DNA from: Streptomyces niveus
Lineage (GTDB): Bacteria; Actinomycetota; Actinomycetes; Streptomycetales; Streptomycetaceae
Length of the DNA stretch: 64,000 nt
Assembly: GCF_002009175.1 (NCBI RefSeq)
Contig: NZ_CP018047.1
Span: 868,001-932,000, forward strand
Direction of reading: 5' to 3'
Below the pieces are notes generated by a model, which was not told the DNA's origin, made no database searches, and was given only the letters and a program-made list of their open reading frames with translations. The position numbers were made by a program, and so were the translations under genes. Shown piece by piece: positions 11,678 through 32,143 of the stretch (its first letter is position 1; every line of letters begins with the position of its first letter).

Positions 11678-11691
11678 GGAGAGCGCTCTCC
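11678..11691. promoter_or_regulatory. Palindromic operator GGAGAGCGCTCTCC, copy 1 (upstream of GH3 gene)
   Basis: A perfect 14-bp palindrome lies 22-35 nt before the GH3 start codon. It resembles LacI-family operators of actinobacterial glucan genes (the CebR/CelR box TGGGAGCGCTCCCA) but has an extra GA/TC step. The same 14-mer occurs at 14235, 30849 and 32130. The likely binder is the LacI protein encoded at 14270-15388. Confidence 0.75.
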
Positions 11692-11712
11692 AACAGCATT
11701 GAAGGGGGCAGC

Positions 11713-14253
11713 ATGGCCGAGGACGAGACCGGACGACTGCTGGAGAAGCTCGACATCGGGCAGAAGGTCCGTCTGCTGACGGGCGCCAGCAATTGGCGTA
11801 CGTACGCCGAACCGGCCGTCGGGCTGCGTCCTCTCACGATGTCCGACGGACCCTCCGGAGTACGCGGTGAGACGTGGGACGAGCGGCGGACCTCCCTCGT
11901 CCTGCCGTCACCGACCGCGCTCGCGGCCTCCTGGGACGAGGAGTTGGTGCGCGAGCTGGGCGGGCTGCTGGCCGCCGAGGCGCGCCGCAAGGGCGTCCAG
12001 GTGCTCCTCGCCCCGACGCTCAACCTGCACCGGTCGCCGCTCGGCGGACGGCACTTCGAGTGCTTCTCCGAGGATCCGCTGCTGACCGCGCGCACGGGCG
12101 TCGCGTTCGTCAAGGGCGTACAGCAGGGCGGTGTCGCGGCCACGGCCAAACACTTCGTGGCCAACGACGCGGAGACCGACCGGCTGCACGTCGACGTGCG
12201 GGTGACCGAGCGGGCGCTGCGCGAGCTGTATCTGGCGCCGTTCGAGGCGGCGGTGGAGGCCGGTGTCTGGGCGGTGATGTCCGCGTACAACAAGGTCAAC
12301 GGCGTGACCATGTCGGCGAGTCCACTCCTGGAGTGGCCGCTGAAGGGAGACAGGCCGCTGCCGGGGAACGGGCCGGTCCAGGGCGGCTGGGGCTTCGACG
12401 GGCTCGTCGTCTCCGACTGGGGGGCGGTTCGCTCGCTGCTGGGCAGCGCGCGCTCGGGCCAGGACCTCGCCATGCCGGGACCGGAGAGCCCGTGGGCGGC
12501 CGGGCTGCTCGCCGCCGTGACGGCGGGCCTGATCGACGAGGCGCGGATCGACGACAAGGTACGGCGGCTGCTGCGGCTCGCCCGGCACGTGGGGGCGCTG
12601 GGCGAACCGCCCCCGGTCCGGCGGCCGTTGACCCCGCCCACCGGTGAACGGGCGGTGCTGCGGCGGGCCGTCGCCGCCGGCACGGTCCTGCTGCGCAACG
12701 AGCGGGGCGCGCTGCCGCTGGATCCGGCCCGGCTGCGCCGCGTCGCTGTCATCGGCCCACGGGCGACGGCCGTACGGATCCAGGGGGGCGGCAGCGCGGA
12801 GGTGTTCCCGTCGTCCGTGGTCACGCCGCTGGAGGGGATCGAGGCGGCACTGCGCGAGGCGCCTCTCCGAGGTGCCGGCGACCGGGCCGAGGTGACGTAC
12901 ACACCTGGGGTGCCGCCGGACACCCACCCGCGGCCGCTCGACCCGGCCTGGACGCGGGATCCTCGCGATGGCGAACCGGGTGTCCTCGTACGGCTGCTGG
13001 ATGCCGACGGCGCCGAACTGCACGCCGAACACCGGCTGTCGGGCCGCATCGTGGAACCGGCCCGTGTCGCGGGCGCCGTCACCGTGGAGATCCGCGCGCT
13101 CGTCCGGCCCCCGGAGAGCGGGAGTTGGACGCTGGGTGTGGGGGGCTGGGGGCTCATCTCCCTGTCCGTGGACGGCCGGACACTGCTGTCGGGCGAGTTC
13201 CCGCTCGACAGCGACGACCCGACCCGCATCCATGTCTCCCCGCCCTACCGGTGTGTACGGGCCGAGTTGACCGAGGGCGTCGAGTCGGAGGTGGTCGCGC
13301 GGCGGCGGCTGGATTCCGGGACAGGTGTGGCGACGCTGCTGGCCGCCGCCCCGCCGCCGGGTGACGCGCCGTCGGCGCTCGCCGCCGCCGTGGCCGCCGC
13401 GCGGGCCGCCGATGTCGCGGTGGTCGTGGTGGGCACGACCGAGGAGAGCGAGTCCGAGGGCCGCGACCGCGAGTCGCTGGCGCTGCCCGGCGGGCAGGAC
13501 GCGCTCGTACGGGCGGTGGCCCGCGCCAACCCGCGCACGGTGGTGCTGGTGAACTCGGGCGGCCCGGTCGCGCTGCCCTGGCACCGCGAGGTGCCCGCGC
13601 TGCTCCTCACCTGGTTCCCGGGGCAGGAGGCCGGACACGGCCTGGCCGACGTGCTGTTCGGCCGCGCGGAGCCGGGCGGACGGCTGCCGACGACCTGGGC
13701 GCTGGCAGAGGAGGACGTCCCGGTGCTCGGCACCCGGCCGCGCGACGGACGCCTTCCTTACGAGGAGGGCGTCCACATCGGCCACCGTGCGTGGCTGCGC
13801 GCAGGGGCGGAGCCGGCGTACTGGTTCGGTCACGGGCTCGGCTACACGACGTGGGCGTACGAGGGGATGGAGGCGCCTCGTGCCGTAGCCGGGGACGGGG
13901 CCGGTGTCGACGTACGCATACGGCTGCGCAACACCGGCCCGCGCAGGGGGCGTGAGGTCGTCCAGGTCTATGTGGCCAGGGCGGACACGACGGTCGACCG
14001 GCCGGTGCGGGCGCTCGCGGGTTACGCCGCCGTGGAGGCGGGCCCCGGCGAGGAGGCCGTGGCGACCGTACGGCTCGCCGCGCGGGCCCTGGCGCACTGG
14101 TCGGCGGACGGCGGACGCTGGGAGACGGAACCGGGCGCGTTCACGCTCCTGGCGGGCTCCTCGGCGGGAGAGCTGCCGCTGAGCACGACGGTTACGGTGG
14201 TGGCGTCGGGGCCGCTCGCGCCGGACACGTCGATGGAGAGCGCTCTCCGCTGA
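11713..14253 (+). CDS. Glycoside hydrolase family 3 beta-glucosidase with inserted PA14-like domain
   Basis: This cytoplasmic (no signal peptide) beta-glucosidase has 846 residues. The GH3 N-terminal barrel contains KHFVANDAETDR and the nucleophile Asp235 in GFDGLVVSDWGAV. The C-terminal domain has VVVGTTEESESEGRDRESL, holding the acid/base Glu near 580-582. Between them, about residues 415-530, is a beta-rich segment (SWTLGVGGWGLISLSVDGR) typical of the PA14 insertion found in one GH3 subgroup, and the end is fibronectin-III-like. AAGGGGG sets the start. The gene is preceded by a GGAGAGCGCTCTCC operator and followed 16 nt later by a LacI regulator. It probably hydrolyses imported beta-linked gluco-oligosaccharides; the linkage is not known. 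Confidence 0.93.
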   Translation: MAEDETGRLLEKLDIGQKVRLLTGASNWRTYAEPAVGLRPLTMSDGPSGVRGETWDERRTSLVLPSPTALAASWDEELVRELGGLLAAEARRKGVQVLLAPTLNLHRSPLGGRHFECFSEDPLLTARTGVAFVKGVQQGGVAATAKHFVANDAETDRLHVDVRVTERALRELYLAPFEAAVEAGVWAVMSAYNKVNGVTMSASPLLEWPLKGDRPLPGNGPVQGGWGFDGLVVSDWGAVRSLLGSARSGQDLAMPGPESPWAAGLLAAVTAGLIDEARIDDKVRRLLRLARHVGALGEPPPVRRPLTPPTGERAVLRRAVAAGTVLLRNERGALPLDPARLRRVAVIGPRATAVRIQGGGSAEVFPSSVVTPLEGIEAALREAPLRGAGDRAEVTYTPGVPPDTHPRPLDPAWTRDPRDGEPGVLVRLLDADGAELHAEHRLSGRIVEPARVAGAVTVEIRALVRPPESGSWTLGVGGWGLISLSVDGRTLLSGEFPLDSDDPTRIHVSPPYRCVRAELTEGVESEVVARRRLDSGTGVATLLAAAPPPGDAPSALAAAVAAARAADVAVVVVGTTEESESEGRDRESLALPGGQDALVRAVARANPRTVVLVNSGGPVALPWHREVPALLLTWFPGQEAGHGLADVLFGRAEPGGRLPTTWALAEEDVPVLGTRPRDGRLPYEEGVHIGHRAWLRAGAEPAYWFGHGLGYTTWAYEGMEAPRAVAGDGAGVDVRIRLRNTGPRRGREVVQVYVARADTTVDRPVRALAGYAAVEAGPGEEAVATVRLAARALAHWSADGGRWETEPGAFTLLAGSSAGELPLSTTVTVVASGPLAPDTSMESALR
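14235..14248. promoter_or_regulatory. Palindromic operator GGAGAGCGCTCTCC, copy 2 (upstream of lacI-type gene)
   Basis: The perfect 14-bp palindrome sits inside the last codons of the GH3 gene and directly upstream of the probable -10 element of the LacI-type gene, the place where a bound repressor would block RNA polymerase. This implies autoregulation. Confidence 0.72.
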
Positions 14254-14256
14254 TGC

Positions 14257-14262
14257 TATAAA
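14257..14262 (+). promoter_or_regulatory. Probable -10 element TATAAA of the LacI-type gene (leaderless transcript)
   Basis: TATAAA stands out in GC-rich surroundings, and its last base is 8 nt before the ATG at 14270. A transcript would start at or next to the A of the start codon, and no ribosome-binding site is visible, so the mRNA is probably leaderless. Confidence 0.55.
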
Positions 14263-14269
14263 TGCGCTC

Positions 14270-15388
14270 ATGACGGAGGATTCACGAGCGGTCGGCGCGC
14301 CCACGCTGGAGGATGTCGCCAAGGCGGCCGGGGTCTCCCGCGCCACCGTCTCACGCGTCATCAACGGTGTACGCAACGTCGATCCGGTGATCCAGGCGGC
14401 CGTACGGGACGCGGTGGCCGTCACCGGGTACACCCCCAACCGCGCGGCCCGCTCACTCGTCACCCGCAAGGCCGACTCGATCGCCCTGGTGGTGTCGGGC
14501 GCCGGCGACGACCCGCCGCCGGTCGCCGCGACGGCGGGGGGCGGGAGCGGCGACGGCGGCCGAGAGGGTGCCGGATTCGACGGGGGCGTGGGCTCCTTCA
14601 TGACGGACGTCTTCGGCGACCCGTTCTTCGGGCGGGTGGTGACGGGGGTCGTCAACTTCCTTCGCCCGCGCGGGATTCATCCGGTGCTGATGTTCGCCGA
14701 GACCTCGCGTGCGCGGGACGAGGTGGTGTCGTACCTGCGCCAGGGCAGCGCCGACGGGGCGCTGGTCGTCTCGACACACGCCGAGGACCCGCTGCCCGCG
14801 CTCATCACCGACGCCGGTCTGCCCGCCGTGCTGTACGCGCGCCCCGCCCGTCCCGTACGGATCAGCTACGTCGACCTCGCCCACCAGGACGGCGCCCGGC
14901 TGGCCGCCGAGCATCTGCTCGCCCGTGGCTGCCGGCGGATCGTCACGATCGCCGGGCCGCTCGACATACCGGCGGGGCAGGACCGGCTGGCGGGCTTCCG
15001 GGACACGATGGCCCGGCAGGGACATCCGTACGTCCCCGTGACGGAGGGCCAGTTCACCGAGGAGAGCGGCGCGTCGGCGATGGAGCGGCTGCTCGCGGAA
15101 CAGCCGGACCTGGACGGGGTGTTCGCGGCCAACGACCTGATGGCCGTAGGCGCGTGCCGGGTGCTGCGTGAGCGCGGGCGGCGGGTGCCGGAGGATGTCG
15201 CGGTGATCGGCTTCGACGACAGCCGCGCGGCGGCGTCGTGCCGGCCGCCGCTGACGACGGTGCGGCAGCCGGTGGAGGACATGGCGGCGGAGATGGCGCG
15301 GCTGCTGCTGGATCGCCTGGCGCGGCCGGAACGTCCGGTGACGTCGGTGATCTTCGAACCCACCCTGATCCAACGCGCCTCGGCCTGA
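14270..15388 (+). CDS. LacI-family transcriptional regulator of the GGAGAGCGCTCTCC regulon
   Basis: This 372-residue repressor has the N-terminal helix-turn-helix LEDVAKAAGVSRATVSRVIN followed by the hinge region TPNRAARSLVTRKADSIALVV. The effector domain shows FAANDLMAVGACRVLRERG and VPEDVAVIGFDDSRAA. A Gly/Ala-rich insert of about 35 residues (near residues 78-112) separates the hinge from the conserved FGDPFFGRVV start of the effector core, which is unusual. The gene follows the GH3 beta-glucosidase by 16 nt and has its own operator and -10 box. It is the best candidate to bind the four GGAGAGCGCTCTCC sites in the window. The inducer is presumably a beta-glucan-derived sugar (inference). 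Confidence 0.93.
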   Translation: MTEDSRAVGAPTLEDVAKAAGVSRATVSRVINGVRNVDPVIQAAVRDAVAVTGYTPNRAARSLVTRKADSIALVVSGAGDDPPPVAATAGGGSGDGGREGAGFDGGVGSFMTDVFGDPFFGRVVTGVVNFLRPRGIHPVLMFAETSRARDEVVSYLRQGSADGALVVSTHAEDPLPALITDAGLPAVLYARPARPVRISYVDLAHQDGARLAAEHLLARGCRRIVTIAGPLDIPAGQDRLAGFRDTMARQGHPYVPVTEGQFTEESGASAMERLLAEQPDLDGVFAANDLMAVGACRVLRERGRRVPEDVAVIGFDDSRAAASCRPPLTTVRQPVEDMAAEMARLLLDRLARPERPVTSVIFEPTLIQRASA

Positions 15389-15398
15389 CCGGCGGGGT

Positions 15399-15793: not shown

Positions 15794-15799
15794 AGGTGG

Positions 15800-17104
15800 C
15801 TACGTCGGCGACGGGGCCCATCGTGGGGGTGGCACGTTGCCCGGGGGCGGCGGCAGCGGACGCGTGCCGCCGCGGGCGAGGAAGTCCGTCAGGGGCAGCG
15901 TCGCCGCGCCGACAGTCACCGCGTCGGGCCCGAGCCGCCCCATCTCGACCGTCGCCCGCGCCCCCGTGTGCCGCAGCGCGTACTCGCGGGCGTAGCGGCG
16001 GATGTCCGGCAGCAGGTGCGGGCCGATCAGAAGGCCCGCCCACCCACCGAGCAGCACCCGTTCCGGCAGGAACAGGTTGATCAGGTCGGCCACCGCGGCC
16101 CCGAGGCACTCCGCGGTCTCGTCGAGCAGCGCCACCGCGACCGGGTCCGGCGCCGCCCCGCCCGGCGGCGGGAAGGCCGCGGCCAGCAGGGCCGCCAACG
16201 CCGTCTCGTCGTCCGCGTCGGCCGGCAGCGGGCCCCCCGCCTCCTGCCAGCGCTCGCGCATCGCCTCCGCGCCCGCGTACGCCTCCAGGCAGCCGATGGA
16301 GCCGCAACGGCAGCGCCGGCCCCGCATCTGCACAGTGGTGTGGCCCCATTCGAGCGCGCTGCTGCGCTGGTTCTCGTCGAGCGTGCCGCCTTCGCCACCG
16401 TGAATCACGCTGGCACCCACGCCGGAGCCGATGAGCGCGATCGCGGCCGTACCGGTGCCCCGCCCGCCGCCGAACCACATCTCCGCCTGGCCGAGCGTCT
16501 TGGCGCCGTTGTCGATGAAGAGCGGGACCTCGGCGGGTATGTCGACGGCGGCCCGCAGCAGTTTCTCGAAGGGCACCGCGCTCCAGCCCATGGTCTGGCC
16601 GTGGACGACCGCGCCCTCGGGGCCGTCGCGTTCGATGATGCCGGGGACGCCGATGCCGATGCCGAGAAGTTCGCGCGGGTCTGCACCGGCGTCCCGCAGG
16701 ACGTGGGCGACGCCGGTGCGCACGTGCGCGACGATGCGTTCGACGTCGTGACCGTGCTGCGCCAACAGCCTTTCGGTGCGGGCGAGTTCGGTCAGGGACA
16801 GATCGAAGAGTTCGACACGGACGCGAGTCTCCCCGATGTCGATGCCGATGAGCAGCGCGCCGCTCGGAGCCACGCGCAGCAGCGTGCGGGGCCTGCCGCC
16901 GTCGGAGTCGACCACACCGGCCTCCTCCAGGAGGCGTTCGGCGGCGAGTTCGGTGACGACGTTGCTGATGGAACCTGAACTCAGTCCGGTCGCGGGGCCG
17001 AGCTCCTGACGGCTCAGGGGCCCGTCGAAATACAACCGTTGCAACACCCTCGCCCGGTTGCCCCTGCGCAGGTCACGCACTGTTCTTCTGTCCCGCTCGG
17101 CCAT
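15800..17104 (-). CDS. ROK-family transcriptional regulator
   Basis: This 434-residue sugar-responsive repressor has an N-terminal winged helix (LRRGNRARVLQRLYFDGPLS; ELGPATGLSSGSISNVVTEL). It is followed by a ROK kinase-like domain with the ATP-loop LLIGIDIGETRVRVELFDL, the GIGIGVPGII segment and the zinc-binding signature CRCGSIGCLEAYAGAEA. It is divergent from the SBP-permease-GH1 operon starting at 17245, with a 140-nt gap holding an AT-rich inverted repeat, so it most likely controls that operon and itself. The ligand is unknown, presumably a beta-glucoside or its phosphate (inference). Confidence 0.93.
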   Translation of the reverse strand: MAERDRRTVRDLRRGNRARVLQRLYFDGPLSRQELGPATGLSSGSISNVVTELAAERLLEEAGVVDSDGGRPRTLLRVAPSGALLIGIDIGETRVRVELFDLSLTELARTERLLAQHGHDVERIVAHVRTGVAHVLRDAGADPRELLGIGIGVPGIIERDGPEGAVVHGQTMGWSAVPFEKLLRAAVDIPAEVPLFIDNGAKTLGQAEMWFGGGRGTGTAAIALIGSGVGASVIHGGEGGTLDENQRSSALEWGHTTVQMRGRRCRCGSIGCLEAYAGAEAMRERWQEAGGPLPADADDETALAALLAAAFPPPGGAAPDPVAVALLDETAECLGAAVADLINLFLPERVLLGGWAGLLIGPHLLPDIRRYAREYALRHTGARATVEMGRLGPDAVTVGAATLPLTDFLARGGTRPLPPPPGNVPPPRWAPSPT

Positions 17105-17167
17105 GGTGCTCCTTCCCAGCAGGCAACATACCCCGGTCCCAGACCTTGACGCGACCTTCCCTCACCT

Positions 17168-17190
17168 CTTAAATCACGACATAAATTAAG
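17168..17190. promoter_or_regulatory. AT-rich inverted repeat CTTAA-n13-TTAAG, candidate ROK operator
   Basis: CTTAA (17168-17172) and TTAAG (17186-17190) flank an AT-rich 13-nt centre in the divergent region between the ROK gene and the SBP gene. ROK/NagC-type regulators commonly bind such AT-rich palindromes. No CebR-type box is present here. Confidence 0.5.
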
Positions 17191-17244
17191 CCGTGAGGCA
17201 GCGTTCGACTCTCGAACACAGCCACCCCGGAAAGGGGCAGTCCC

Positions 17245-18561
17245 ATGCGCCGAATCAGAGCCGCAGCAGTCATCACCCTCACCACCGCCCTCGCCGCCAC
17301 CGTCACCGGTTGCGGCGGCGGAACGTCGACCGACGAGGGCGGCAGCAACGACTCACCGAAGACGCTCACCTACTGGGCGTCCAACCAGGGCCCCAACATC
17401 GAGGCCGACAAGAAGATCCTCACTCCCGAGCTGAAGAAGTTCGAGAAGGAGACGGGGATCAAGGTCAAGCTCGAAGTGGTGCCCTGGTCCGATCTGCTCA
17501 CCCGGATCCTGGCCGCCACCACGTCCGGGCAGGGCCCCGACGTACTGAACATCGGCAACACCTGGTCCGCCTCGCTCCAGGCGACCGGCGCGCTGCTGCC
17601 GTGGGACGACAAGAACTTCGAGGCGATAGGCGGCCGGGACCGCTTCGTCGACTCGGCGGTCGCCTCCGCAGGCGCCGAGGGCGAGCCGCCGGCGGCCGTA
17701 CCGCTGTACTCGCTCGCGTACGCGCTCTACTACAACAAGCAGATGTTCGCGGACGCCGGTATCGACGGTCCGCCCGCCACCTGGGACGAGCTGGTCGCCG
17801 ACGGCAAGAAGCTGTCCAAGGACGGCAAATGGGCGCTGGGCGCCGAGGGCGGCAACCTGTCGAACAACATCCACCAGGTCTTCGCGCTCGGCCAGCAGCA
17901 CGGCGCCGACTTCTTCGACGCGTCGGGCAAGCCGACCTTCACCGCCGACGGCAATGTCGCGGCGGTGAAGCAGTACATCGACTTCATGGCCAAGGACAAG
18001 ATCATCGCTCCGGGCAACGCGGAGTACGCCCAGAACCAGTCGCTGACCGACTTCGCCAAGGGCAGGACGGCGATGGTGCTCTGGCAGGCCGCGGCCTCCA
18101 CGTTCGCCTCCCAGGGCATGAAGCCCGAGGACTGGGGCGCGGCGCCCGTACCCGTGCCGTCCGGCGTGCCCGGCGCCGACAAGCAGGTCAACTCGATGGT
18201 CGCCGGCATCAACATCGCCGTCTTCAAGAACACCAAGAACGTCGACGGCGCCAGGAAGTTCGTCAAGTTCATGACGAGCGACGCCGAGCAGAAGCTCCTC
18301 AACAAGACCTACGGGTCGATCCCGCCCGTCGCCGCGGCCCAGGCCGACCCGGCGTTCGCCGCGCCCGACCTGAAGGTCCTGCGCGACACCCTCGCGAACA
18401 GCGCGGCGCCGCTCCCCCAGGTGCCGGAGGAGTCGCAGTTCGAGACCGCCGTCGGGACCGCGGTCAAGGACCTGTGGGCGGACGCCGCCTCAGGGACCCC
18501 CGTGACGACCGAGTCCGTCAAGAAGCGGCTGGACAAGGCCCAGCAGCAGATGCAGCAGTGA
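17245..18561 (+). CDS. Extracellular sugar-binding lipoprotein, CUT1 family
   Basis: This receptor for an oligosaccharide importer has 438 residues. The signal peptide ends in a lipobox at Cys23 (LAATVTGC), followed by a Gly/Ser linker and an extracellular solute-binding family 1 fold (LTYWASNQGPNIEADKKILTPE; DVLNIGNTWSASLQATGALLPWD; DFAKGRTAMVLWQAAASTFA). GGAAAGGGG before the ATG gives a strong ribosome-binding site. Two permease genes follow with a 10-nt gap and no ATPase is encoded, as usual for Streptomyces CUT1 systems that borrow a shared MsiK. The GH1 gene at the operon end suggests a beta-glucoside ligand (inference). Confidence 0.93.
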   Translation: MRRIRAAAVITLTTALAATVTGCGGGTSTDEGGSNDSPKTLTYWASNQGPNIEADKKILTPELKKFEKETGIKVKLEVVPWSDLLTRILAATTSGQGPDVLNIGNTWSASLQATGALLPWDDKNFEAIGGRDRFVDSAVASAGAEGEPPAAVPLYSLAYALYYNKQMFADAGIDGPPATWDELVADGKKLSKDGKWALGAEGGNLSNNIHQVFALGQQHGADFFDASGKPTFTADGNVAAVKQYIDFMAKDKIIAPGNAEYAQNQSLTDFAKGRTAMVLWQAAASTFASQGMKPEDWGAAPVPVPSGVPGADKQVNSMVAGINIAVFKNTKNVDGARKFVKFMTSDAEQKLLNKTYGSIPPVAAAQADPAFAAPDLKVLRDTLANSAAPLPQVPEESQFETAVGTAVKDLWADAASGTPVTTESVKKRLDKAQQQMQQ

Positions 18562-18571
18562 GGCACCGCCC

Positions 18572-19582
18572 ATGACGTCCACCGTGACTCCCCCCGTACG
18601 CAAGACGGGCAGCGGGGCGGACCGGGGCGACGGGGGTGCGCGGCGGCGACGTCTGCCGCGCCTCCCCGACCGGATCCGCCACGGCGGGCTGCCCTATCTG
18701 CTGCTGCTCCCCGCCGTCCTGCTCGAACTGCTCGTGCACATCGTCCCGATGGTGATCGGGATCGTCATGAGCTTCCGCGAACTGACGCAGTTCTACATCA
18801 ACAACTGGGACAAGGCTCCGTGGCGGGCGTTCGACAACTACAAGATCGTTGTCGACTTCGACGCCCCGCTCGGCGAGGCGCTGCTCCACTCCTTCTACGT
18901 CACCTGTCTCTTCACGGTCATCACGGTCGGCCTGTCCTGGCTGTTCGGCATGGCCGCGGCGATCATGCTCCAGGAGAACTTCCGCGGCCGGGGTCTGCTG
19001 CGGGCGGTCTTCCTCACGCCGTACGCGCTGCCCGTGTACGCCGCCGTCATCACCTGGGCGTTCATGTTCCAGCGCGACAACGGCATCATCAACCACGTCC
19101 TGCACGACCAGCTCGGCCTCACCGACGAGCCGTCCTTCTGGCTGATCGGTGACAACAGCTTCATCGCGCTCGTCGTCGTCGCGGTCTGGAAGTCCTGGCC
19201 GTTCGCCTTCCTCATGCTCATGGCCGGGCTCCAGAACATCCCGCGCGAGCTGTACGAGGCGGCGTCCATCGACGGCGCGGGCATCTGGCAGCAGATCCGC
19301 AAGATCACCCTGCCGTCCCTTCGGCCGGTCAACCAGGTGCTGGTGCTGGTGCTGTTCCTGTGGACGTTCAACGACTTCAACACGCCGTACGTACTGTTCG
19401 GCGACTCGGCGCCCGAGGCGGCCAACCTGATCTCGATCCATATCTACCAGTCGTCGTTCGTCACCTGGAACTTCGGTACGGGCTCCGCGATGTCCGTCCT
19501 GCTGCTGCTCTTCCTGCTGCTGGTGACGGCGGTCTATCTGGTGGCCACCTCGCGCGGAAGGAAGGGTTCCGGTGCCGTCTAA
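18572..19582 (+). CDS. Sugar ABC transporter permease, MalF-like
   Basis: This membrane subunit has 336 residues. A basic 30-residue cytoplasmic N-terminus precedes six hydrophobic segments, and the ATPase-docking EAA loop is ELYEAASIDGAGIWQQIRK. It lies between the receptor gene (10 nt upstream) and the second permease, whose GTG start overlaps its 3' end by 11 nt. Confidence 0.92.
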   Translation: MTSTVTPPVRKTGSGADRGDGGARRRRLPRLPDRIRHGGLPYLLLLPAVLLELLVHIVPMVIGIVMSFRELTQFYINNWDKAPWRAFDNYKIVVDFDAPLGEALLHSFYVTCLFTVITVGLSWLFGMAAAIMLQENFRGRGLLRAVFLTPYALPVYAAVITWAFMFQRDNGIINHVLHDQLGLTDEPSFWLIGDNSFIALVVVAVWKSWPFAFLMLMAGLQNIPRELYEAASIDGAGIWQQIRKITLPSLRPVNQVLVLVLFLWTFNDFNTPYVLFGDSAPEAANLISIHIYQSSFVTWNFGTGSAMSVLLLLFLLLVTAVYLVATSRGRKGSGAV

Positions 19583-20450
19583 GCCCCTGGCCGGCAAGGC
19601 CAGATCTCCCCTCGCTCCTCCGGCGTCCTTCCTCTGGACCCGCCGGATCATCCTGGCGTTCCTCACCGCCTTCGCCCTGCTGCCCGTCTATGTGATGGTC
19701 AGCAGTTCGCTGAAGCCGCTGGAGGACGTGACGGGCAAGTTCCAGTGGATCCCGTCCGAGATCACCATTCGTCCGTACTTCGACATCTGGGACACGGTTC
19801 CGCTCGCGCACTACTTCGTGAACTCGCTGATCGTGGCGGGCGCGGCGACGGTGCTGTCGGTGACGATCGCGGTGTTCTCCGCGTACGCCGTGAGCCGCTA
19901 CCGGTTCAGGGGCAAGCGCGTCTTCACCGTCACGGTGCTCTCCACACAGATGTTCCCGGGCATCCTCTTCCTGCTCCCGCTGTTCCTGATCTTCGTCAAC
20001 ATCGGCAACAGCACGGGCGTCGCCCTGTACGGGTCCCGGGGCGGGCTCATCCTCACCTATCTGACCTTCTCCCTGCCCTTCTCCATCTGGATGCTGATCG
20101 GGTACTTCGACTCCATCCCGAGGGATCTGGACGAGGCGGCGATGGTGGACGGCTGCGGTCCGTTCGGCGCACTGTTCCGGGTGGTCGTGCCGGCGGCGAT
20201 TCCCGGCATCGTGGCCGTGTCGGTCTACGCGTTCATGACGGCCTGGGGAGAAGTGCTCTTCGCGTCGGTGATGACGAACGACGAGACCCGCACGCTCGCC
20301 GTCGGCCTCCAGGGCTACGCGACCCAGAACGACGTGTACTGGAACCAGATCATGGCGGCGTCGCTCGTCGTCAGCGTGCCCGTCGTCGCCGGGTTCCTGC
20401 TTCTTCAGCGCTATCTCGTCGCCGGTCTGACGGCGGGGGCGGTCAAGTGA
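19572..20450 (+). CDS. Carbohydrate ABC transporter permease, MalG-like
   Basis: This is the second membrane subunit, 292 residues, with six predicted membrane segments and the EAA loop [19 protein letters not shown]. It starts at GTG 19572, overlapping the MalF-like gene, with GAAGG a few bases upstream. The end AVK is typical of MalG-type proteins. A GH1 beta-glucosidase follows after 62 nt. Confidence 0.92.
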
Positions 20451-20512
20451 CGTCACATCAGGTGATTCGCCGTCAATCCATTCCCCAAGTGGCCCCTGCG
20501 GAAAGGCAGTCA

Positions 20513-21859
20513 GTGAACGACCTCAACGCCCTCCCCCACGATTTCCTCTGGGGCGTGGCCACCGCCGCCTATCAGATCGAGGGCGCCGTCACCGAGGACG
20601 GCCGCTCGCCCTCGATCTGGGACACCTTCTCCCACACCGCCGGCAAGGTCGACAACGGCGACACCGGGGACATCGCCTGCGACCACTACCACCGGGTGCC
20701 CGAGGACATCGGCCTGATGAAGCGGCTCGGGGTCGGCGCGTACCGCTTCTCCCTCGCCTGGCCGCGCGTCGTGCCCGGCGGGGACGGGCCGGTGAACGAG
20801 GCCGGGATCGACTTCTACGACCGGCTGGTGGACAGCCTGCTGGAGGCGGGCATCACCCCCTTCGCCACGCTCTACCACTGGGACCTCCCGCAGACGCTCC
20901 AGGACCGGGGCGGCTGGCCGGCCCGCGAGACGGCCGAGCACTTCGCGGCCTACGCCGCGGTCGTCGCCGAGCGCCTGGGCGACCGGGTCAAGGACTGGGC
21001 GACCCTCAACGAGCCGCTGTGCTCCGCGTGGATCGGCCATCTGGAGGGCAAGATGGCGCCGGGGCTCACCGACATCAAGGCAGCGGTGCACGCCTCGTAC
21101 CATCTGCACCTCGGTCACGGTCTCGCCGTCCAGGCCATCCGCGCGGCGTCCTCCGACGCCCGTGTCGGCATCGTCAACAACCTCAGTCCTATCGAGGCGG
21201 CCACCGACCGCGAGGCGGACCGGGCGGCGGCCGTACGGGCCGACGGTCACATCAACCGCTGGTGGCTGGACCCGGTCCACGGGCGCGGCTACCCGCAGGA
21301 CATGCTCGACCTGTACGGGGTGGAGCTGCCGGAGCGCCCCGGCGATCTGGAGACCATCGCCGAGCCGCTGGACTGGCTGGGGCTGAACTACTACTTCCGC
21401 CAGGTCGTCGCCGACGACCCGGCCGGGCCCGCGCCGTACGCCAAGCAGGTCTATCTGCCGGGCGTGCGCCACACGGCGATGGACTGGGAGGTGCACGCGG
21501 ACGGCCTGGAGGAGCTGCTGGTGCGGCTGACCGAGGAGTACGGCGCGCAACGCGTGTACGTCACCGAGAACGGCTCGGCCTACCCGGACGTCCTGCGGGA
21601 CGACGGCACGGTCGACGACCCGGAGCGCACCACGTATCTGGAGGAGCATCTGGCGGCCTGCGCGCGTGCGGTACGCAAGGGGGTGCCGCTCGCCGGGTAC
21701 TTCGCGTGGTCGCTGCTGGACAACTTCGAGTGGGCGTACGGCTACGACAAGCGGTTCGGCCTGGTCCATGTCGACTACGCGTCGCAGCGCCGCACGATGA
21801 AGTCGAGCGGATACCGATACGCCGAGATCATCCGCGAGTCGGCGGCGCGGAAGCGGTAG
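20513..21859 (+). CDS. Glycoside hydrolase family 1 beta-glucosidase
   Basis: This cytoplasmic beta-glucosidase (no signal peptide) has 448 residues, the usual GH1 size. It begins [16 protein letters not shown], with acid/base Glu167 in TLNEP and nucleophile Glu352 in TENG; the [14 protein letters not shown] aglycone motif is present as [20 protein letters not shown] chose GTG 20513 (AAAGG 6 nt upstream); GTG 20448, overlapping the permease stop, would add 22 residues. It closes the ROK-controlled transporter operon and likely splits the imported beta-glucoside. The stop TAG coincides with the left end of a repeat element. Confidence 0.95.
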
Positions 21860-22239: not shown

Positions 22240-22325
22240 GGGGATTTTCTCCCTACGCGCCCGTCCCCGGCAGCGGTCGACGCCACTGGCGGGGACGGGG
22301 GTTGGGGCTCAGATCTGATGAGGCG

Positions 22326-27523: not shown

Positions 27524-27668
27524 GAGTTTCTCCTGATCATTCGGTTGAAGTACTGCTGATGGCTGAGGAGTTGAAAGGGTGGGGGGTGAAAATCCGGGGG
27601 CGTCGTCGGGCAGTACCGGTCCCGCCCCCTGGCCGGTGCGGCGGGGGTCCGGGAGCGGGTGCGGCGGG

Positions 27669-28439
27669 TCAGACGCGGATGACCTGAGGGCCCAGCAGCG
27701 AGTAGCGCTGCGCCTCCGCCGACGGGAGTCCGACGTCGGTGACGATCGTCTCGAAGTCGCCGACATCGGCGAACCGGCAGAAGCTGACGGCGCCGAACTT
27801 GGTGTGGATCCCGGCGAACACCTTGCGGCGCGAGCTGCGCATGGCCTGGGCCTTCACCTCGCTGACGGCCGGGTCGGGGGTGGTCAGCCCGTACTCGCGC
27901 GAGATGCCGTTCGCGCCGACGAACGCCAGGTCGATGACGAAGTCGGCGAGCATCCGGGTCGCCCAGTGGTCGACCGTCGCGAAGGTGCCGCCGCGCACCC
28001 TGCCGCCGAGCAGCAGGACGGCGATCTTGTCGGCGTCGGCCAGTCCGTTGGCGACCGCCAGGGACGCGGTGACGACGGTCAGTGGGCGGTCCCTGGGCAG
28101 GGCCTCGGCGACGAGCTGCGGGGTGAAGCCCTCGTCGATGAAGACCGTCTCGGCGTCGCCGATGAGATCGGCGGCGGCCGCCGCGATCCGTGACTTCTGC
28201 GGTACGAGGCGGGTGGTCCGCACCGCGAGGGTCGTCTCGTAGCCGGCGCTCTCGACGGGGTAGGCGCCGCCGTGGGTGCGCCGTACCAGGCCGTGCTCCT
28301 CCAGGGCGTGCAGGTCACGCCGGACGGTCTCCTTGGCCACGCTCAACTTCGTGGCCAGCGCGGTGACTTCCACCGACCCGTCACGTCGGGCGATCTCAAG
28401 AATTTCTCGTCGGCGTTCGTCCGTGTCCACGACACACAC
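27669..28439 (-). CDS. DeoR-family transcriptional regulator
   Basis: This 256-residue sugar-phosphate-responsive regulator has an N-terminal helix-turn-helix, RRREILEIARRDGSVEVTAL and KETVRRDLHALEEHGLVRR, the classic DeoR motif. The C-terminal DeoRC sensor contains IDEGFTPQLVAEAL and GANGISREYGLTTPDPAVSEVK. The start GTG 28439 is close behind AGGGAA; GTG 28430 is equally possible. It precedes the polyol transporter operon on the same strand and likely represses it until a phosphorylated intermediate, perhaps the PfkB product, binds. Confidence 0.92.
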   Translation of the reverse strand: MCVVDTDERRREILEIARRDGSVEVTALATKLSVAKETVRRDLHALEEHGLVRRTHGGAYPVESAGYETTLAVRTTRLVPQKSRIAAAAADLIGDAETVFIDEGFTPQLVAEALPRDRPLTVVTASLAVANGLADADKIAVLLLGGRVRGGTFATVDHWATRMLADFVIDLAFVGANGISREYGLTTPDPAVSEVKAQAMRSSRRKVFAGIHTKFGAVSFCRFADVGDFETIVTDVGLPSAEAQRYSLLGPQVIRV

Positions 28440-28479
28440 TTCCCTGCTCTGCTGCGGCTCAGCACCCGTTCGGGCTCAT

Positions 28480-28505
28480 GGGTCGTTTTTACAAGCAAGG
28501 GACCC
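28480..28505. promoter_or_regulatory. Inverted repeat GGGTC-n16-GACCC around a T-rich core upstream of deoR-type gene
   Basis: GGGTC (28480) and GACCC (ending 28505) flank GTTTTTACAAGC, an AT-rich stretch about 50 nt before the DeoR start. It is a weak candidate promoter or operator. The rest of the 566-nt gap 28440-29005 holds no gene I can support and two long hairpins (28870-28908 and 28955-29000). Confidence 0.3.
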
Positions 28506-28869
28506 GGCTCGACCAGGCTCTTCGCGGCTTTGAGTGTGACCGTTCATGCCCGTTTCCCCATCAGCGTATGTGCAGGTGGTACGGGGGGTAACCCCCTCTC
28601 ACGCCCGGTTCGGTGCCCGATTGGCGCTGATCACTGCCCGAACGGCGCCCGAAGCGGTGGGCGGACTTCCGTGCGCGGGTCGTCTAAACGTGAGCTGCGT
28701 CCCGTCCGACCCCCCAAAACGGTCAGCGAAACGGGCACGGAAACATGTACGGACCACGTACGAATCACGACCGACACGTGCCCGACATGCGGGCAGCGGC
28801 GGCGCGCAAACGGGCGGGCTCGGGCGGGGTCGGGCTCGGCTGTCGCCGGGCGCCGGGCGCGCGGAAATG

Positions 28870-28908
28870 CCCGCGGCGGGCCACGGATCTTCCGTGACCC
28901 GCCGCGGG
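28870..28908. terminator. Long hairpin, 18-bp arms with one mismatch
   Basis: CCCGCGGCGGGCCACGGA (28870-28887) and TCCGTGACCCGCCGCGGG (28891-28908) are inverted around a 3-nt loop. It lies about 45 nt beyond a second large hairpin downstream of the minus-strand glycosidase gene. Either a second terminator or a structured RNA element. Confidence 0.5.
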
Positions 28909-28954
28909 ACCACCGCGCCGCCGGCGGGGAGAGCGCGGCGCGGCAGGAGTGGTC

Positions 28955-29000
28955 GGCCGCGGGTGTCCGGCCGGAGAAGGCCGGCCGGGCACCCGCGGCC
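28955..29000 (-). terminator. Long hairpin terminator of the secreted glycosidase gene
   Basis: A 20-nt arm at 28955-28974 (starting GGCCGCGGGTG) pairs with 28981-29000 with a single mismatch across a 6-nt loop. It begins 5 nt past the stop codon of the minus-strand gene at 29006, the expected place for intrinsic termination. Confidence 0.7.
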
Positions 29001-29005
29001 GTCGG

Positions 29006-30775
29006 TCAGCGGTAGACGCCGAACTCGTAGAGCGAGTAGCCCCACGGGGTGCCACGTTCGGTGGCGTTCACCCTCACGTAGCGGCCCTCGCCGTTGACCG
29101 CGATGTCGTCGATTCCTCCGTCGCCACCGGTGACGGTCCTGATCGTGCTCCAGTCCTGCCCGTTGTCGGACGTCTGGACGGTGTAGCTCTTGCCGTACGC
29201 GGCCTCCCAGGCGAGCTGTACGTGCTTGAACGCGGTTCGCGCGCCAAGGTCCACCTGGATCCACTGCGGGTCGGCCCAGTCGCTGGCCCACCGGCTGCCG
29301 AAGTCGCCGTCGACGGCGTTGGCCGCCGGGCAGGGGCAGCCGACGCTGTCGGGCTGGAAGGACGACGCGGTGGCCGGCCTGCCCTTGGCCACATTCGTGC
29401 CGTCGACGGGCGGCGGCACGACCTTGAAGGACTTGGTCTCGATCCCCACGTTGCCCTTGCCGTCGGACGCCTTGATGTACACCTTCCACACGCCGAGCTT
29501 GTCGGGCGCGGTCACGGTGAAGTCCCCGTTGCCCTCGGCGGTGAACCGGGCCGGCGTCAACTGCCCGCTGTTGTCTATGTACTTGCTGTTGACCAGCACC
29601 TCGTAGCTCAGGGCGTCACCGTTCGGGTCGGTCACGTCCGACGTGACCTTGAACGGGCGTCCGGCCGGTACGGACGTGGCGCCGTCGACGGCCATGTTCG
29701 AGATCACCGGCGGCTTGTTGTCGCCGGCGGTGCTCCTGCCGTACGCCTCCTTCACCGCGTAGTACGACAGGCGCTTCTGGCCCGCGGGCAGCAGGTTGAA
29801 CCAGACGCCGCCGAAGTCGTACTCGGTGCCGTAGTGGAAAAGCGTGGCGCCGAGGGCGACGCCCCGGTGGCCGGTGACGCAGTTCCACGCGTCCTTGTAC
29901 CCCTGGGCCTTGGCGACGTCGGTGGGCTCGGACGCGACGCCGTTGACGTCGTCGTCCACCTCCCACTCGCCGGCGGGGCCGCCCTCGGTGACGATGTAGG
30001 GCTTGGTGTAACCCCCGGCGTTCCAGGCGTCGTCGATGTTGCACACGTCGGCGTAGGAGTTCACCGAGTACAGGTCGAGATCGGGCGCGTTGCGCTTGTA
30101 GTACGGCCAGGCCCCGGTCCAGGCGTCGGTGGAGGTCACCGGGTGGTTCGGGTCGACGGAGTGGATCTTCTTGGCGATGTCGTTGACGAAGGTGGTGTAC
30201 GCGTTGCGCTGCTGCTCCAGCGCGTCGCCGCTGTAGCAGTTCTGGAGGCCGAGTACGGACTCGTTCCCGACGTTCCACATCAGCACGCCCGCGTGGTCCT
30301 TGTAGGTCTCCACCCACTTGGGGAACTCGGCGAGCATGTCGTTCTTGTATTGCGTGTCGGTGAGGTAGTTGACGCAGCCACCGCTGCCGGGGCCGCCGCC
30401 GGGCTGGAGCCAGAAACCGGCGATGACCTTGATGCCGTTGGCGGCGGCCGAGTCGAGGAGGGGCTTGGTGGTGCCGTCGGTGCCCCAGGTCCGGATGGTG
30501 TTGACACCCATGGAGGCAACGTCGGGCATGTACTTGCCGGCGTCGGCGACGGCCGGGCCCCAGGTCAGGCCCTTGACCTGGTACGGCGCTCCGTCGACGG
30601 TCAGCTGCCAGGCGCCCTGTGATCCGGTGACCTTGACGACGCTGCCCGCGGCGTGCGCGGGCTGGGCGGCCGGGAGGGTCACGGCGAAGGCGGCGAGAAG
30701 TGTGGTGGCGGCGACCGATGCCATGGTGCGCAGCCGGCCGGGCGCGGATCTCGGGAAGAGTCGTGAATCGCTCAT
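29006..30775 (-). CDS. Secreted glycoside hydrolase (clan GH-A, GH2/GH5-like barrel) with C-terminal F5/8-type carbohydrate-binding domain
   Basis: This is a 589-residue exported protein. The signal peptide spans residues 1-42 (ending PAAQPAHA). The catalytic barrel (about 45-350) begins VDGAPYQVKGLTWGP and has the clan GH-A acid/base Glu172 in WNVGNES and a nucleophile candidate Glu264 in IVTEGG. A beta-sandwich follows (360-455, starting PPVISNMAVDGA), then a discoidin/CBM32-like domain (about 460-589: GRPATASSFQPDS; GSRWASDWADPQWIQVDLG). A GGGAGAGCGCTCTCCC operator lies 72 nt upstream, linking it to the LacI/GH3 pair at 11.7-15.4 kb. Substrate is likely an extracellular beta-glucan, which is inference; the exact GH family needs a profile search. 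Confidence 0.85.
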   Translation of the reverse strand: MSDSRLFPRSAPGRLRTMASVAATTLLAAFAVTLPAAQPAHAAGSVVKVTGSQGAWQLTVDGAPYQVKGLTWGPAVADAGKYMPDVASMGVNTIRTWGTDGTTKPLLDSAAANGIKVIAGFWLQPGGGPGSGGCVNYLTDTQYKNDMLAEFPKWVETYKDHAGVLMWNVGNESVLGLQNCYSGDALEQQRNAYTTFVNDIAKKIHSVDPNHPVTSTDAWTGAWPYYKRNAPDLDLYSVNSYADVCNIDDAWNAGGYTKPYIVTEGGPAGEWEVDDDVNGVASEPTDVAKAQGYKDAWNCVTGHRGVALGATLFHYGTEYDFGGVWFNLLPAGQKRLSYYAVKEAYGRSTAGDNKPPVISNMAVDGATSVPAGRPFKVTSDVTDPNGDALSYEVLVNSKYIDNSGQLTPARFTAEGNGDFTVTAPDKLGVWKVYIKASDGKGNVGIETKSFKVVPPPVDGTNVAKGRPATASSFQPDSVGCPCPAANAVDGDFGSRWASDWADPQWIQVDLGARTAFKHVQLAWEAAYGKSYTVQTSDNGQDWSTIRTVTGGDGGIDDIAVNGEGRYVRVNATERGTPWGYSLYEFGVYR

Positions 30776-30846
30776 GAGTCACCTGTGGGGAGAGTGCGGG
30801 CGGGGATACGGGAAGCGCGTGCGGAGAGCAGATGGCGGAAGAGGAA

Positions 30847-30864
30847 TGGGAGAGCGCTCTCCCA
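30847..30864. promoter_or_regulatory. Palindromic operator TGGGAGAGCGCTCTCCCA, copy 3 (perfect 18 bp)
   Basis: This is the longest copy of the GGAGAGCGCTCTCC site. It lies in the 127-nt gap between the DUF1996 gene and the secreted glycosidase, 72 nt before the latter's start codon. Confidence 0.8.
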
Positions 30865-30902
30865 CCAGGGCGGAGTGCACCCCGGCGGGAGAGCGGTCCC
30901 GG

Positions 30903-32000
30903 TCACGGCAGTTGGTAATCCTCGTTCAGGGCCGCACCGGCCTGTGGATTGTTCTGGTCGTAGCCGCGCGCGTCGCACTGGAGGCCGCCGACGACGCAGT
31001 GGTTGACCATGGCGGCCAGGGTGGCGTTGTCCCAGGCGTTGAAGAAGTCGTAGTGGAACGAGTGTCCCGTCCCACTGGCGAGTCTCACCTTGGACATGTC
31101 TCCGTTCACCGGCCATGCCATCTTGAACTCGACCATCGGGAGCGCCACCGGGTGCGACGTCGGGCAGACGTCCTGGTTGGCGCCCTGGACGAGCGGATAG
31201 GCCATGTGACTCTTGTGGTCCGGGGTGTCCAGATACTTTCCGTCCCAGCAACTGGGTGCCTGGAAGCGGAGGTTGAGCTGGACATCACGGGTGGCCGGGC
31301 AACTGGCCGGGATCTCGGTGTTGTTGAACGAATTACCGCACTCCCAGCCCTCCACCCAGCCCGGATGGTTACGGAACTGCTCGGCCGTCTGGGTCGGGCT
31401 GCCGACGACGAACCGCAGGCCCTTCGGGAACGGCCGGACGGTCCGGTAGTCGGTGACTCCCGCCTTGTAGTAGATGACCTGCGGGCCGATGGGCCGTACC
31501 GGCTGGTTGTCATTCAGCAGGGTCGGCATCCAGTACGCGGACCGGTCGCCCGGCGCCTTGCACGCGGTGGTGCCGGCGTCCAGCGAGGCCGTGGTGCTGT
31601 TGGCGTCGGTGGTCCGGTTGCCCATGAAGGTGTGGTCGTGCGACGCGCCCGGCTGTCCCGGGTAGACGATCGGGTCGTCCGGCCTGGTGTGGGTGACGTC
31701 GCAGTTCGCCTGGAACTCGTGGAAGTAGCGGTGCGGCGGGATCTCGTCCGACGGCACGACGCCGGTGACCGGCGGGTTCGCCGGTATGTAGCCGTCGCCG
31801 TCCGGATCGTCACCCGACGGGACGGGGACGGCCGGTGGCATCTTGTGTCCCGCGTGGGAAGCGGCCGTGGTGCCGCGGTCGCTCCTGGGATCGGCGGTCG
31901 CGGTGTCCGTGATCGCGGTCAGCCCCATGGCCACCAGGGCCAGGGCGGTGAACACGAGCAACGCGGACACCAGGGTGGATCTGCGAAGTCTTTCGGCCAT
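30903..32000 (-). CDS. Secreted DUF1996-domain protein
   Basis: This is a 365-residue exported protein of unknown function. A signal peptide/anchor (residues 1-36, LVSALLVFTALALVAMGL) is followed by a short linker and one DUF1996 domain. The domain is marked by FHEFQANCDVTHTRPDDPIVYP, the His-rich GASHDHTFMGN, WMPTLL, NHPGWVEGWECGNSF, CPATRDVQLNLRFQAPSCWDG and HFDF-like SGTGHSFHYDFFNAWD. ATG 32000 is chosen because GGAGG lies 5 nt before it; ATG 32012 and 32030 are in frame but lack a ribosome-binding site. DUF1996 is known mainly from fungal and actinobacterial secreted proteins, often with carbohydrate-binding modules. A GGAGAGCGCTCTCC site 130 nt upstream ties it to the glucan-type regulon. 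Confidence 0.9.
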   Translation of the reverse strand: MAERLRRSTLVSALLVFTALALVAMGLTAITDTATADPRSDRGTTAASHAGHKMPPAVPVPSGDDPDGDGYIPANPPVTGVVPSDEIPPHRYFHEFQANCDVTHTRPDDPIVYPGQPGASHDHTFMGNRTTDANSTTASLDAGTTACKAPGDRSAYWMPTLLNDNQPVRPIGPQVIYYKAGVTDYRTVRPFPKGLRFVVGSPTQTAEQFRNHPGWVEGWECGNSFNNTEIPASCPATRDVQLNLRFQAPSCWDGKYLDTPDHKSHMAYPLVQGANQDVCPTSHPVALPMVEFKMAWPVNGDMSKVRLASGTGHSFHYDFFNAWDNATLAAMVNHCVVGGLQCDARGYDQNNPQAGAALNEDYQLP

Positions 32001-32129
32001 GCGGACCTCCATGCCGCTCTTCGTCCGCATACGCGCCGTATGCGGTGGGGGGAGAGAGTGGTACTGGACGGTGCACCGCGGACAGCGGCTCTCCGGTCCG
32101 GGAATGTCAGGAACACCGGAATCACTGTG

Positions 32130-32143
32130 GGAGAGCGCTCTCC
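32130..32143. promoter_or_regulatory. Palindromic operator GGAGAGCGCTCTCC, copy 4 (upstream of DUF1996 gene)
   Basis: This is a perfect 14-bp copy within the 366-nt divergent region between the DUF1996 gene and gnd, 130 nt from the DUF1996 start and 224 nt from gnd. It more likely serves the DUF1996 gene. The rest of the gap holds the gnd promoter region, without an element I can define. Confidence 0.72.

What the first reader, a model, noticed from the sequence alone, without database searches (positions are those of the whole stretch)
11678..32143. Dispersed GGAGAGCGCTCTCC regulon linking a cytoplasmic GH3, its LacI regulator, a secreted clan-A glycosidase and a DUF1996 protein
The same perfect palindrome occurs at 11678, 14235, 30847 (extended to 18 bp) and 32130. 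Each copy lies upstream of, or next to the promoter of, a gene plausibly used in beta-glucan breakdown or its control, though the sites are spread over 20 kb and three transcription units. It is close to the CebR/CelR box but not identical, pointing to a sister LacI regulator with its own regulon. This would put a DUF1996 protein of unknown function inside a polysaccharide pathway.
Basis: partly seen in the sequence, partly recalled or inferred. Interest (0 to 1): 0.72.

Follow-up and report, generated by a model that had tools for sequence, protein, structure and literature searches.

The report
A repressor's beta-1,3-glucan gene set
A soil Streptomyces carries four copies of one DNA switch that very probably let a single sugar-sensing repressor control enzymes for eating beta-1,3-glucan (a fungal-wall and algal sugar polymer), and a protein family of unknown function, DUF1996, belongs to that gene set in many related species.

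Summary
GGAGAGCGCTCTCC occurs exactly four times in the 7.99 Mb genome, all in this window, each before a gene: GH3, a LacI regulator, a secreted GH158-CBM32 protein and a secreted DUF1996 protein. In 71 of 78 named relatives the core precedes DUF1996; 59 other palindromes of the same composition occur in none. In 36 of 63 loci DUF1996, GH158 and LacI lie in order on one strand; the window holds a dispersed version. The box follows a conserved -35/-10 promoter (69 of 73), where a repressor would block transcription. Elsewhere in the genome the core lies before GH55, GH81, GH64 and GH16 beta-1,3-glucanase genes and a second DUF1996. The regulator is a CebR relative (42% identical) with another recognition helix and box. 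Most likely: a LacI repressor regulon for beta-1,3-glucan that includes DUF1996, probably an extracellular enzyme with five invariant histidines. Outside the genus the box was near DUF1996 in only 1 of 13 loci. The box was printed for Streptosporangium roseum in 2012. Binding, inducer and DUF1996 activity are untested.

The parts
11678..11691 (.). operator-like palindrome GGAGAGCGCTCTCC, 21 bp before the GH3 start codon
11713..14253 (+). GH3 beta-glucosidase-type enzyme; no signal peptide seen by eye, so probably cytoplasmic
   Evidence: Pfam GH3 N, C and Fn3-like domains; NCBIfam beta-d-glucosidase model at 762 bits, below its curated cut-off of 1300; PDB 7pjj Beta-glucosidase E=3.5e-193
14235..14248 (.). 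operator-like palindrome at the end of the GH3 frame, 21 bp before the lacI start; a TATAAA -10-like stretch follows at 14257-14262 (read by eye)
14270..15388 (+). LacI-family regulator, CebR relative with recognition helix AGVSRATVSR
   Evidence: PF00356 and PF13377; helix comparison; 42% identical to the CebR-type L206
29006..30775 (-). secreted GH158-like glycosidase with C-terminal CBM32 (F5/8 C) domain; probable catalytic Glu172 and Glu264; signal peptide by eye
   Evidence: PDB 9oro GH158 E=2.1e-30, 6pal E=1.2e-23, CBM32 2rv9 E=4.9e-30
30847..30864 (.). 18-bp operator-like palindrome TGGGAGAGCGCTCTCCCA before the GH158 gene
30903..32030 (-). secreted DUF1996 protein (signal peptide by eye); invariant H131 H133 D162 S164 H272 H275 H326 D328 (full-length numbering)
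   Evidence: PF09362 E=2.7e-49; conservation in 50 distinct sequences; AF2 model pLDDT 94.4
32130..32143 (.). operator-like palindrome before the DUF1996 gene
32155..32160 (-). -10 hexamer AACACT of the conserved DUF1996 promoter
   Evidence: present with the -35 in 69 of 73 relatives, one mismatch allowed in each; position read
32179..32184 (-). -35 hexamer TTGACA of the conserved DUF1996 promoter, 18-bp spacer
   Evidence: position read
15800..17104 (-). ROK-family regulator (NagC/Mlc-like, below those models' cut-offs) next to the uptake genes; frequent neighbour in relatives, no box of its own
17245..20450 (+). sugar ABC transporter (binding protein and two permeases), followed by a GH1-like frame inside 19745-21859; probable uptake route (inferred)
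   Evidence: the GH1 assignment of the window frame is by eye, its homologue in L107 is Pfam GH1

Best explanation
The palindromes are operators of the LacI-family repressor encoded at 14270-15388. Without inducer the repressor sits on the box just downstream of the -10 element of the DUF1996 promoter, and on the sites before the GH158 gene, the GH3 gene and its own gene, and blocks transcription. A short beta-1,3-glucan oligosaccharide made outside the cell and taken up (laminaribiose is the best guess) releases it. GH158-CBM32 and DUF1996 are then secreted and act on beta-1,3-glucan such as laminarin or fungal wall; the oligosaccharides are imported and the intracellular GH3 (and the neighbouring GH1) cuts them to glucose. 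The same box family also serves GH55 exo-beta-1,3-glucanases and a second DUF1996 elsewhere in the genome. Many relatives keep the genes in one operon; the window's lineage has them dispersed, each piece with its own box, most simply by break-up of the operon (direction of change not tested). Shown here: box positions, conservation, promoter geometry, gene families and co-inheritance. Inferred: protein-DNA binding, the inducer, and the activity of DUF1996 and GH158.
For: Four exact copies in 7.99 Mb, all before these genes. Core before DUF1996 in 71 of 78 named relatives; 0 of 78 for each of 59 other palindromes of the same composition (the best 80 of 363 relatives were held). In 42 non-redundant upstream regions mean information outside the box is 0.30 bit per column (the core is fixed by the selection, but the bases next to it, 1.72 bit each, are not). 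Promoter TTGACA-N17/18-AACACT (one mismatch allowed in each hexamer) stands before the core in 69 of 73 loci and ends 8-13 bp before it in 67; the same search in the sequences read backwards gave 0. Across 121 genomes of the genus the exact box and a DUF1996 ortholog go together: 45 of 47 with, 3 of 74 without, Fisher p=5e-27. A LacI hit at E <= 1e-80 is in 46 of these 47; in 2 of the 46 (G004, G015) the best hit is only 56% identical and may be a paralog. DUF1996-GH158-LacI in order on one strand in 36 of 63 loci with 8 kb on both sides, 20 of them with GH3 between. Of 16 core copies in the genome, 12 lie at this set or at genes for GH55, GH81 with ABC-GH1, GH64, GH16 or the second DUF1996. 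Recognition helix VSRAT in the 30 best orthologs, none with the CebR core in its locus; VGRGT in 29 of 30 CebR-type loci (one not readable), none with this core.
Against: No binding or expression data. Only 13 of 30 LacI ortholog loci show the core within about 1.5 kb of the LacI gene, as expected if LacI closes an operon but not proof. 7 of 78 DUF1996 genes lack the core directly upstream; 6 of these have GH158 upstream of DUF1996. In a class-wide sample only 5 of 30 DUF1996 loci show the core within about 1.5 kb; of the 22 higher-scoring ones 17 do not, and outside the genus it is 1 of 13, so the link is mainly a Streptomyces one. Two further VSRAT regulators (2911654, 55% identical, and 1090773, 42%) share the genome and could bind the same sites. 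Beside the latter lies a hybrid site TGGGAGCGCTCTCT, which blurs the helix-box rule. 4 of 16 core copies lie by genes not obviously for glucan: GH43-like, GNAT, a protease, one unclear. For GH81, one GH55, the second DUF1996, GH43-like and GNAT the longest frame begins before or at the box, and a later start is my reading. A 1-mismatch copy at 6250043 is inside a called gene. LacI without the exact box occurs in 6 of 51 genomes, the box without LacI in 3 of 48. Relatives are not independent samples.
Confidence: 0.85

Rival explanations
1. The box is a degenerate CebR site, and these genes belong to the cellobiose/cellulose regulon controlled by CebR.
For: Same palindrome family: the CebR box is TGGGAGCGCTCCCA (PMC4898821, passages). 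The CebR-type regulator L206 is 42% identical to this LacI. Anderson et al. treat the S. roseum copy as related to the CelR site (PMC3377646, passages).
Against: The 30 best orthologs of this LacI carry VSRAT and none has the CebR core in its locus; 29 of 30 CebR-type loci carry VGRGT and none has this core (these loci were called CebR-type from the box beside L206, not from function). The sites differ by one inner and one outer base per half-site. The genes found are beta-1,3-glucanases rather than cellulases.
Confidence: 0.05
2. Several VSRAT-type LacI relatives in the genome (14270-15388, 2911654, 1090773) bind one overlapping set of N-GAGAGCGCTCTC-N sites, so the four sites are not a private regulon but part of a shared beta-1,3-glucan network.
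For: All three carry the VSRAT helix. Sites A..C, A..T, G..T and G..C mix within the set. None of the 32 LacI genes of the genome lies within 60 kb of either GH55 gene.
Against: Before DUF1996 the G..C form is kept in 70 of 73 relatives; T..A forms sit by GH81/ABC, GH64 and GH16, suggesting discrimination at the edge base.
Confidence: 0.35
3. DUF1996 is co-regulated but not an enzyme: a glucan-binding or wall/metal-stress protein, as proposed for fungal relatives.
For: Fungal DUF1996 proteins are reported as vacuolar, with roles in stress and metal-ion responses (PMC4738358, abstract and passages). The DUF1996-WSC protein Wsc1I is described as a stress sensor (PMC9148135, passages).
Against: The bacterial protein looks secreted, lies next to GH158 on one strand in 54 of 63 loci, and relatives of the second copy are fused to CBM32-type domains in 45 of 120 listed. 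Five invariant His and two Asp in 50 distinct sequences look catalytic or metal-binding. PMC7679414 notes frequent CBM and WSC partners (passage).
Confidence: 0.35
4. The palindromes are not operators but another element, such as hairpins or a mobile repeat.
For: They are perfect inverted repeats.
Against: Fixed place just after a -10 element, flanks not conserved, tied to one gene set across the genus.
Confidence: 0.02

Closest known systems
CebR/CelR cellobiose repressors and their box TGGGAGCGCTCCCA
   Same: LacI family, 14-bp GCGC-centred palindrome, local repressor of a hydrolysis and uptake gene set
   Different: Box GGAGAGCGCTCTCC, recognition helix VSRAT instead of VGRGT, 42% identity to the CebR-type protein L206, beta-1,3-glucan genes instead of cellulases
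Sros_3721-3725 and Sros_7173 sites in Streptosporangium roseum (Anderson et al. 2012, PMC3377646)
   Same: The identical palindrome upstream of a LacI gene, a GH3 and two CBM32 proteins (passages); a DUF1996-CBM32 protein is listed for S. roseum (P0158), whether one of those two was not checked
   Different: The passages seen name no DUF1996, no GH158 and no substrate for these genes, and say the targets are few and include no cellulose-degrading enzymes
TGAGAGCGCTCTCA sites of Catenulispora acidiphila (same paper)
   Same: Same core, upstream of a LacI and adjacent GH5, and of two GH16 that may be endo-1,3-beta-glucanases (passages)
   Different: T..A edge bases; in this genome that form lies by GH81/ABC, GH64 and GH16 genes, probably under another LacI
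GH158 family (PDB 9oro, 6pal)
   Same: Catalytic domain aligns over about 400 residues with both catalytic Glu
   Different: C-terminal CBM32 like that of a Paenibacillus glucanase/chitosanase (source organism recalled); activity untested
Fungal DUF1996 (vacuolar proteins of Beauveria, PMC4738358)
   Same: Pfam PF09362, DPIXXP head, HXD of the tail signature
   Different: Bacterial protein looks secreted, tail ends AW not GW, sits in a polysaccharide operon

Membership tests
LacI/GalR family regulators | N-terminal LacI HTH plus periplasmic-binding-protein-like effector domain | tested here: met
   PF00356 50.1 bits over cut-off 27; PF13377 136.4 bits over 26.5
CebR/CelR subgroup | box TGGGAGCGCTCCCA near the regulator gene | tested here: not met
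   0 of the 30 best ortholog loci hold GGGAGCGCTCCC; 13 of 30 hold GAGAGCGCTCTC
CebR/CelR subgroup | recognition helix VGRGT as in this genome's CebR-type regulators | tested here: not met
   VSRAT in 30 of 30
LacI-type operator | palindrome overlapping or just downstream of a promoter | tested here: met
   69 of 73 loci have the promoter; in 67 it ends 8-13 bp before the core
LacI-type operator | specific binding by the regulator, released by a sugar | not testable with these tools
   needs gel shift or DAP-seq
GH158 | sequence similarity to solved GH158 with the two catalytic Glu in place | tested here: met
   E=2.1e-30 to 9oro; E172 in WNVGNES and E264 in VTEGGPAGEWE aligned; their roles follow from clan A, recalled
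GH158 | endo-beta-1,3-glucanase activity | not testable with these tools
   no assay
DUF1996 (PF09362) | Pfam score over the curated cut-off | tested here: met
   168.8 bits, cut-off 27
DUF1996 (PF09362) | head DPIXXP and tail HXDXXXGW described for fungi | tested here: inconclusive
   head DPIVYP present; tail HYDFFNAW keeps HXD and W but has A for G
GH55 (genes outside the window with the same core) | similarity to a solved GH55 laminarinase | tested here: met
   1073.7 bits to PDB 4pew for L110; that 4pew/4tyv are the GH55 enzyme SacteLam55A is recalled; the L108 and L110 proteins are 83% identical over 549 residues

The most novel reading that the evidence does not exclude
Secreted DUF1996 is the founding member of a new carbohydrate-active enzyme family that cleaves or oxidises beta-1,3-glucan with a histidine-rich, probably metal-binding centre (H131, H133, H272, H275, H326 with D162 and D328), in a fold without a solved relative. 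The same chemistry would then explain the many fungal DUF1996 proteins, and the bacterial regulon supplies the substrate.
Probability: 0.35. Interest if true: 0.78.

Novelty: new member of a known kind. Interest (0 to 1): 0.52.

Why it matters
DUF1996 occurs in fungi and actinobacteria; 19 papers of the library name it, and the four I opened by passages give it no biochemical function. Its place in one promoter-operator unit with a GH158 enzyme across Streptomyces names a substrate to test. The VSRAT/VGRGT contrast also suggests a simple, testable rule for how related LacI repressors tell near-identical boxes apart, which would help to read beta-1,3-glucan (antifungal, laminarin) gene sets from sequence.
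Full report
OBSERVATION. The palindrome GGAGAGCGCTCTCC stands at 11678, 14235, 30849 and 32130; at 30847-30864 it extends to 18 bp. A scan of the whole 7.99 Mb genome finds these four exact copies and no other, with none for the reversed control pattern. Each copy is placed before a gene: GH3 (11713-14253), LacI (14270-15388), and on the minus strand the GH158-like gene (29006-30775) and the DUF1996 gene (30903-32030).

WHAT THE GENES ARE. The clan-A glycosidase matches solved GH158 proteins (9oro, E=2.1e-30; 6pal, E=1.2e-23; only 9oro is labelled GH158 in the table, 6pal as a GH158 enzyme is recalled) with both catalytic glutamates aligned, and ends in a CBM32 domain like that of a solved glucanase/chitosanase. 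GH158 as an endo-beta-1,3-glucanase family is recalled; the search listing shows it named in beta-glucan papers, none of which I opened. The GH3 belongs to the beta-glucosidase kind. The DUF1996 and GH158 proteins begin with signal-peptide-like stretches (read by eye).

CONSERVATION. A scan of species genomes found 363 relatives of the DUF1996 gene, of which the best 80 named contigs were held (64-96% identity; all Streptomyces in name but for one Actinomadura and two Kitasatospora). 78 have at least 350 bp upstream, and 71 of these hold the 12-bp core from 400 bp upstream to 60 bp downstream of the projected start. None of the 59 other arrangements of the same half-site letters occurs there even once. 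Aligned on the core, 42 non-redundant regions have a mean information of 0.30 bit per column outside the box, while the box itself extends towards TGGGAGAGCGCTCTCCCA. Before the core stands TTGACA-N17/18-AACACT (one mismatch allowed in each) in 69 of 73 loci, ending 8-13 bp before it in 67; the sequences read backwards gave 0. The operator would thus cover the transcription start, as expected for steric repression (inference). The window's own DUF1996 promoter has the same elements (-35 at 32179-32184, -10 at 32155-32160). In the unnamed genus sample the core lies in 27 of the 30 best DUF1996 loci.

LIMITS OF CONSERVATION. In a sample of 296 genomes of the class, 45 have DUF1996. Of the 30 loci taken, 5 show the core within about 1.5 kb: 5 of the 22 higher-scoring and 0 of the 8 lower-scoring ones; outside the genus it is 1 of 13. 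The link is therefore best shown for Streptomyces and one branch of DUF1996.

ORDER OF GENES. In 36 of 63 loci with 8 kb on both sides, DUF1996, GH158 and LacI follow one another on one strand, 20 of them with the GH3 between; DUF1996 and GH158 are adjacent on one strand in 54 of 63. In the window and in relatives such as S. griseus (L131) the parts are further apart and a second box precedes GH158. The dispersed regulon is most simply a broken-up operon, though the direction of change was not tested. Of the 7 loci without an adjacent core, 6 have GH158 upstream of DUF1996.

CO-INHERITANCE. In 121 genomes of the genus, 48 hold the exact box, 47 a DUF1996 ortholog (best E at most 1e-100) and 51 a LacI hit (E at most 1e-80). 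Box and DUF1996 ortholog coincide in 45 genomes, box alone in 3 (one of them, G054, with a partial DUF1996), DUF1996 alone in 2, neither in 71 (Fisher p=5e-27). A LacI hit is present in 46 of the 47; in four of the 51 genomes (G004, G015, G029, G103; two of them among the 46) the best hit is only 52-57% identical and may be a paralog.

THE WIDER REGULON. The 12-bp core occurs 16 times in the genome. Beyond the four here: two at a second DUF1996, with a second LacI about 0.7 kb further on; one each at two GH55 genes, 83% identical to each other, one with CBM32; two between a GH81 gene and an ABC-GH1 operon, one before GH64 and one before a GH16 endo-1,3-beta-glucanase. That makes 12 of 16. The remaining four lie by a GH43-like gene, a GNAT gene, a secreted protease and in one unclear place. 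At GH81, one GH55, the second DUF1996, GH43-like and GNAT genes the longest frame begins before or at the box, and I take a later start (by eye). All eight sites edged by G or A on the left and C or T on the right go with this set, the second DUF1996 or GH55; the eight edged otherwise go with the GH81/GH64/GH16 set and those four.

WHICH REGULATOR. The LacI is 42% identical to the own genome's CebR-type L206, 55% to the paralog beside the second DUF1996 and 42% to the LacI beside GH81. The 30 best ortholog loci of this LacI all carry the helix VSRAT, and 13 hold the core; none holds the CebR core. Of 30 CebR-type loci, 29 carry VGRGT (one not readable), 25 hold GGGAGCGCTCCC, and none holds GAGAGCGCTCTC. 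Both other LacI named above carry VSRAT too, so cross-talk is possible; a hybrid site TGGGAGCGCTCTCT lies beside the GH81 one.

DUF1996. A 100-sequence alignment gave an AlphaFold2 model with mean pLDDT 94.4 and pTM 0.90. Across 50 distinct sequences from three classes, H131, H133, D162, S164, H272, H275, H326 and D328 are invariant. 45 of the 120 listed relatives of the second copy are fused to F5/8 C domains (counted by eye); the CBM32 of one from S. roseum is 50% identical over 129 residues to that of the window's GH158. The PDB comparison was empty but is of doubtful worth, as told in Tried and rejected. I take DUF1996 to be an extracellular beta-1,3-glucan-active protein, more likely than not an enzyme; this is inference.

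PRIOR WORK. The palindrome is in print: Anderson et al. 2012 (PMC3377646, passages) found it in S. roseum before Sros_3721-3725 (a LacI regulator, two CBM32 proteins, a GH3 among them) and before a putative cellobiose ABC operon. It is one of two papers in the library that hold the 12-mer as one word; the other, on sugarcane leaf scald, was not opened. Book et al. 2016 give the CebR box (PMC4898821, passages). A possible link of fungal DUF1996 to polysaccharide breakdown is suggested in PMC7679414 (passage). In searches I saw no paper joining DUF1996, this box and beta-1,3-glucan; the library is open-licence only, and one search listed 5 of 45,943.

VERDICT. A real, conserved LacI-type regulon; kind known, this member and its DUF1996 part largely undescribed as far as these searches show.

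Noticed in passing
L105:10764-10888 (own genome 2909764-2909888): A second DUF1996 gene has two boxes (AGAGAGCGCTCTCC, AGAGAGCGCTCTCT) and a paralogous LacI about 0.7 kb downstream; DUF1996, LacI paralog and box recur together in other genomes of the genus (for example G005, G056, G115).
   Followed up: partly
L107:4533-13348 (own genome about 1.09 Mb): GH81, LacI, ABC transporter and GH1 set with CGAGAGCGCTCTCA and TGAGAGCGCTCTCA near the divergent starts; looks like a related laminarin regulon.
   Followed up: partly
window 15800-21859: ROK regulator, ABC sugar transporter and GH1 set lies between the separate pieces of the regulon, is a frequent neighbour in relatives, and has no box of its own.
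   Followed up: partly
window 34940-37357: Secreted GH3 (over the BglX model cut-off) near the DUF1996 gene without a box.
   Followed up: no
L249:1501 (own genome 6229920): TGAGAGCGCTCTCA about 60 bp before a secreted S1-type protease gene (named by eye); unexpected for a glucan regulon, possibly for attack on fungal walls.
   Followed up: no
L263 (genome G173, outside Streptomyces): Three exact boxes around a DUF1996 gene in another family of the class.
   Followed up: no
L147, L148, L160, L184, L202: Extra CBM32 proteins beside the operon with box variants (AGAGAGCGCTCTCT, AGAGAGCGCTCTCA, AGAGAGCGCTCTCG, AGAGAGCGCTCTCC).
   Followed up: no
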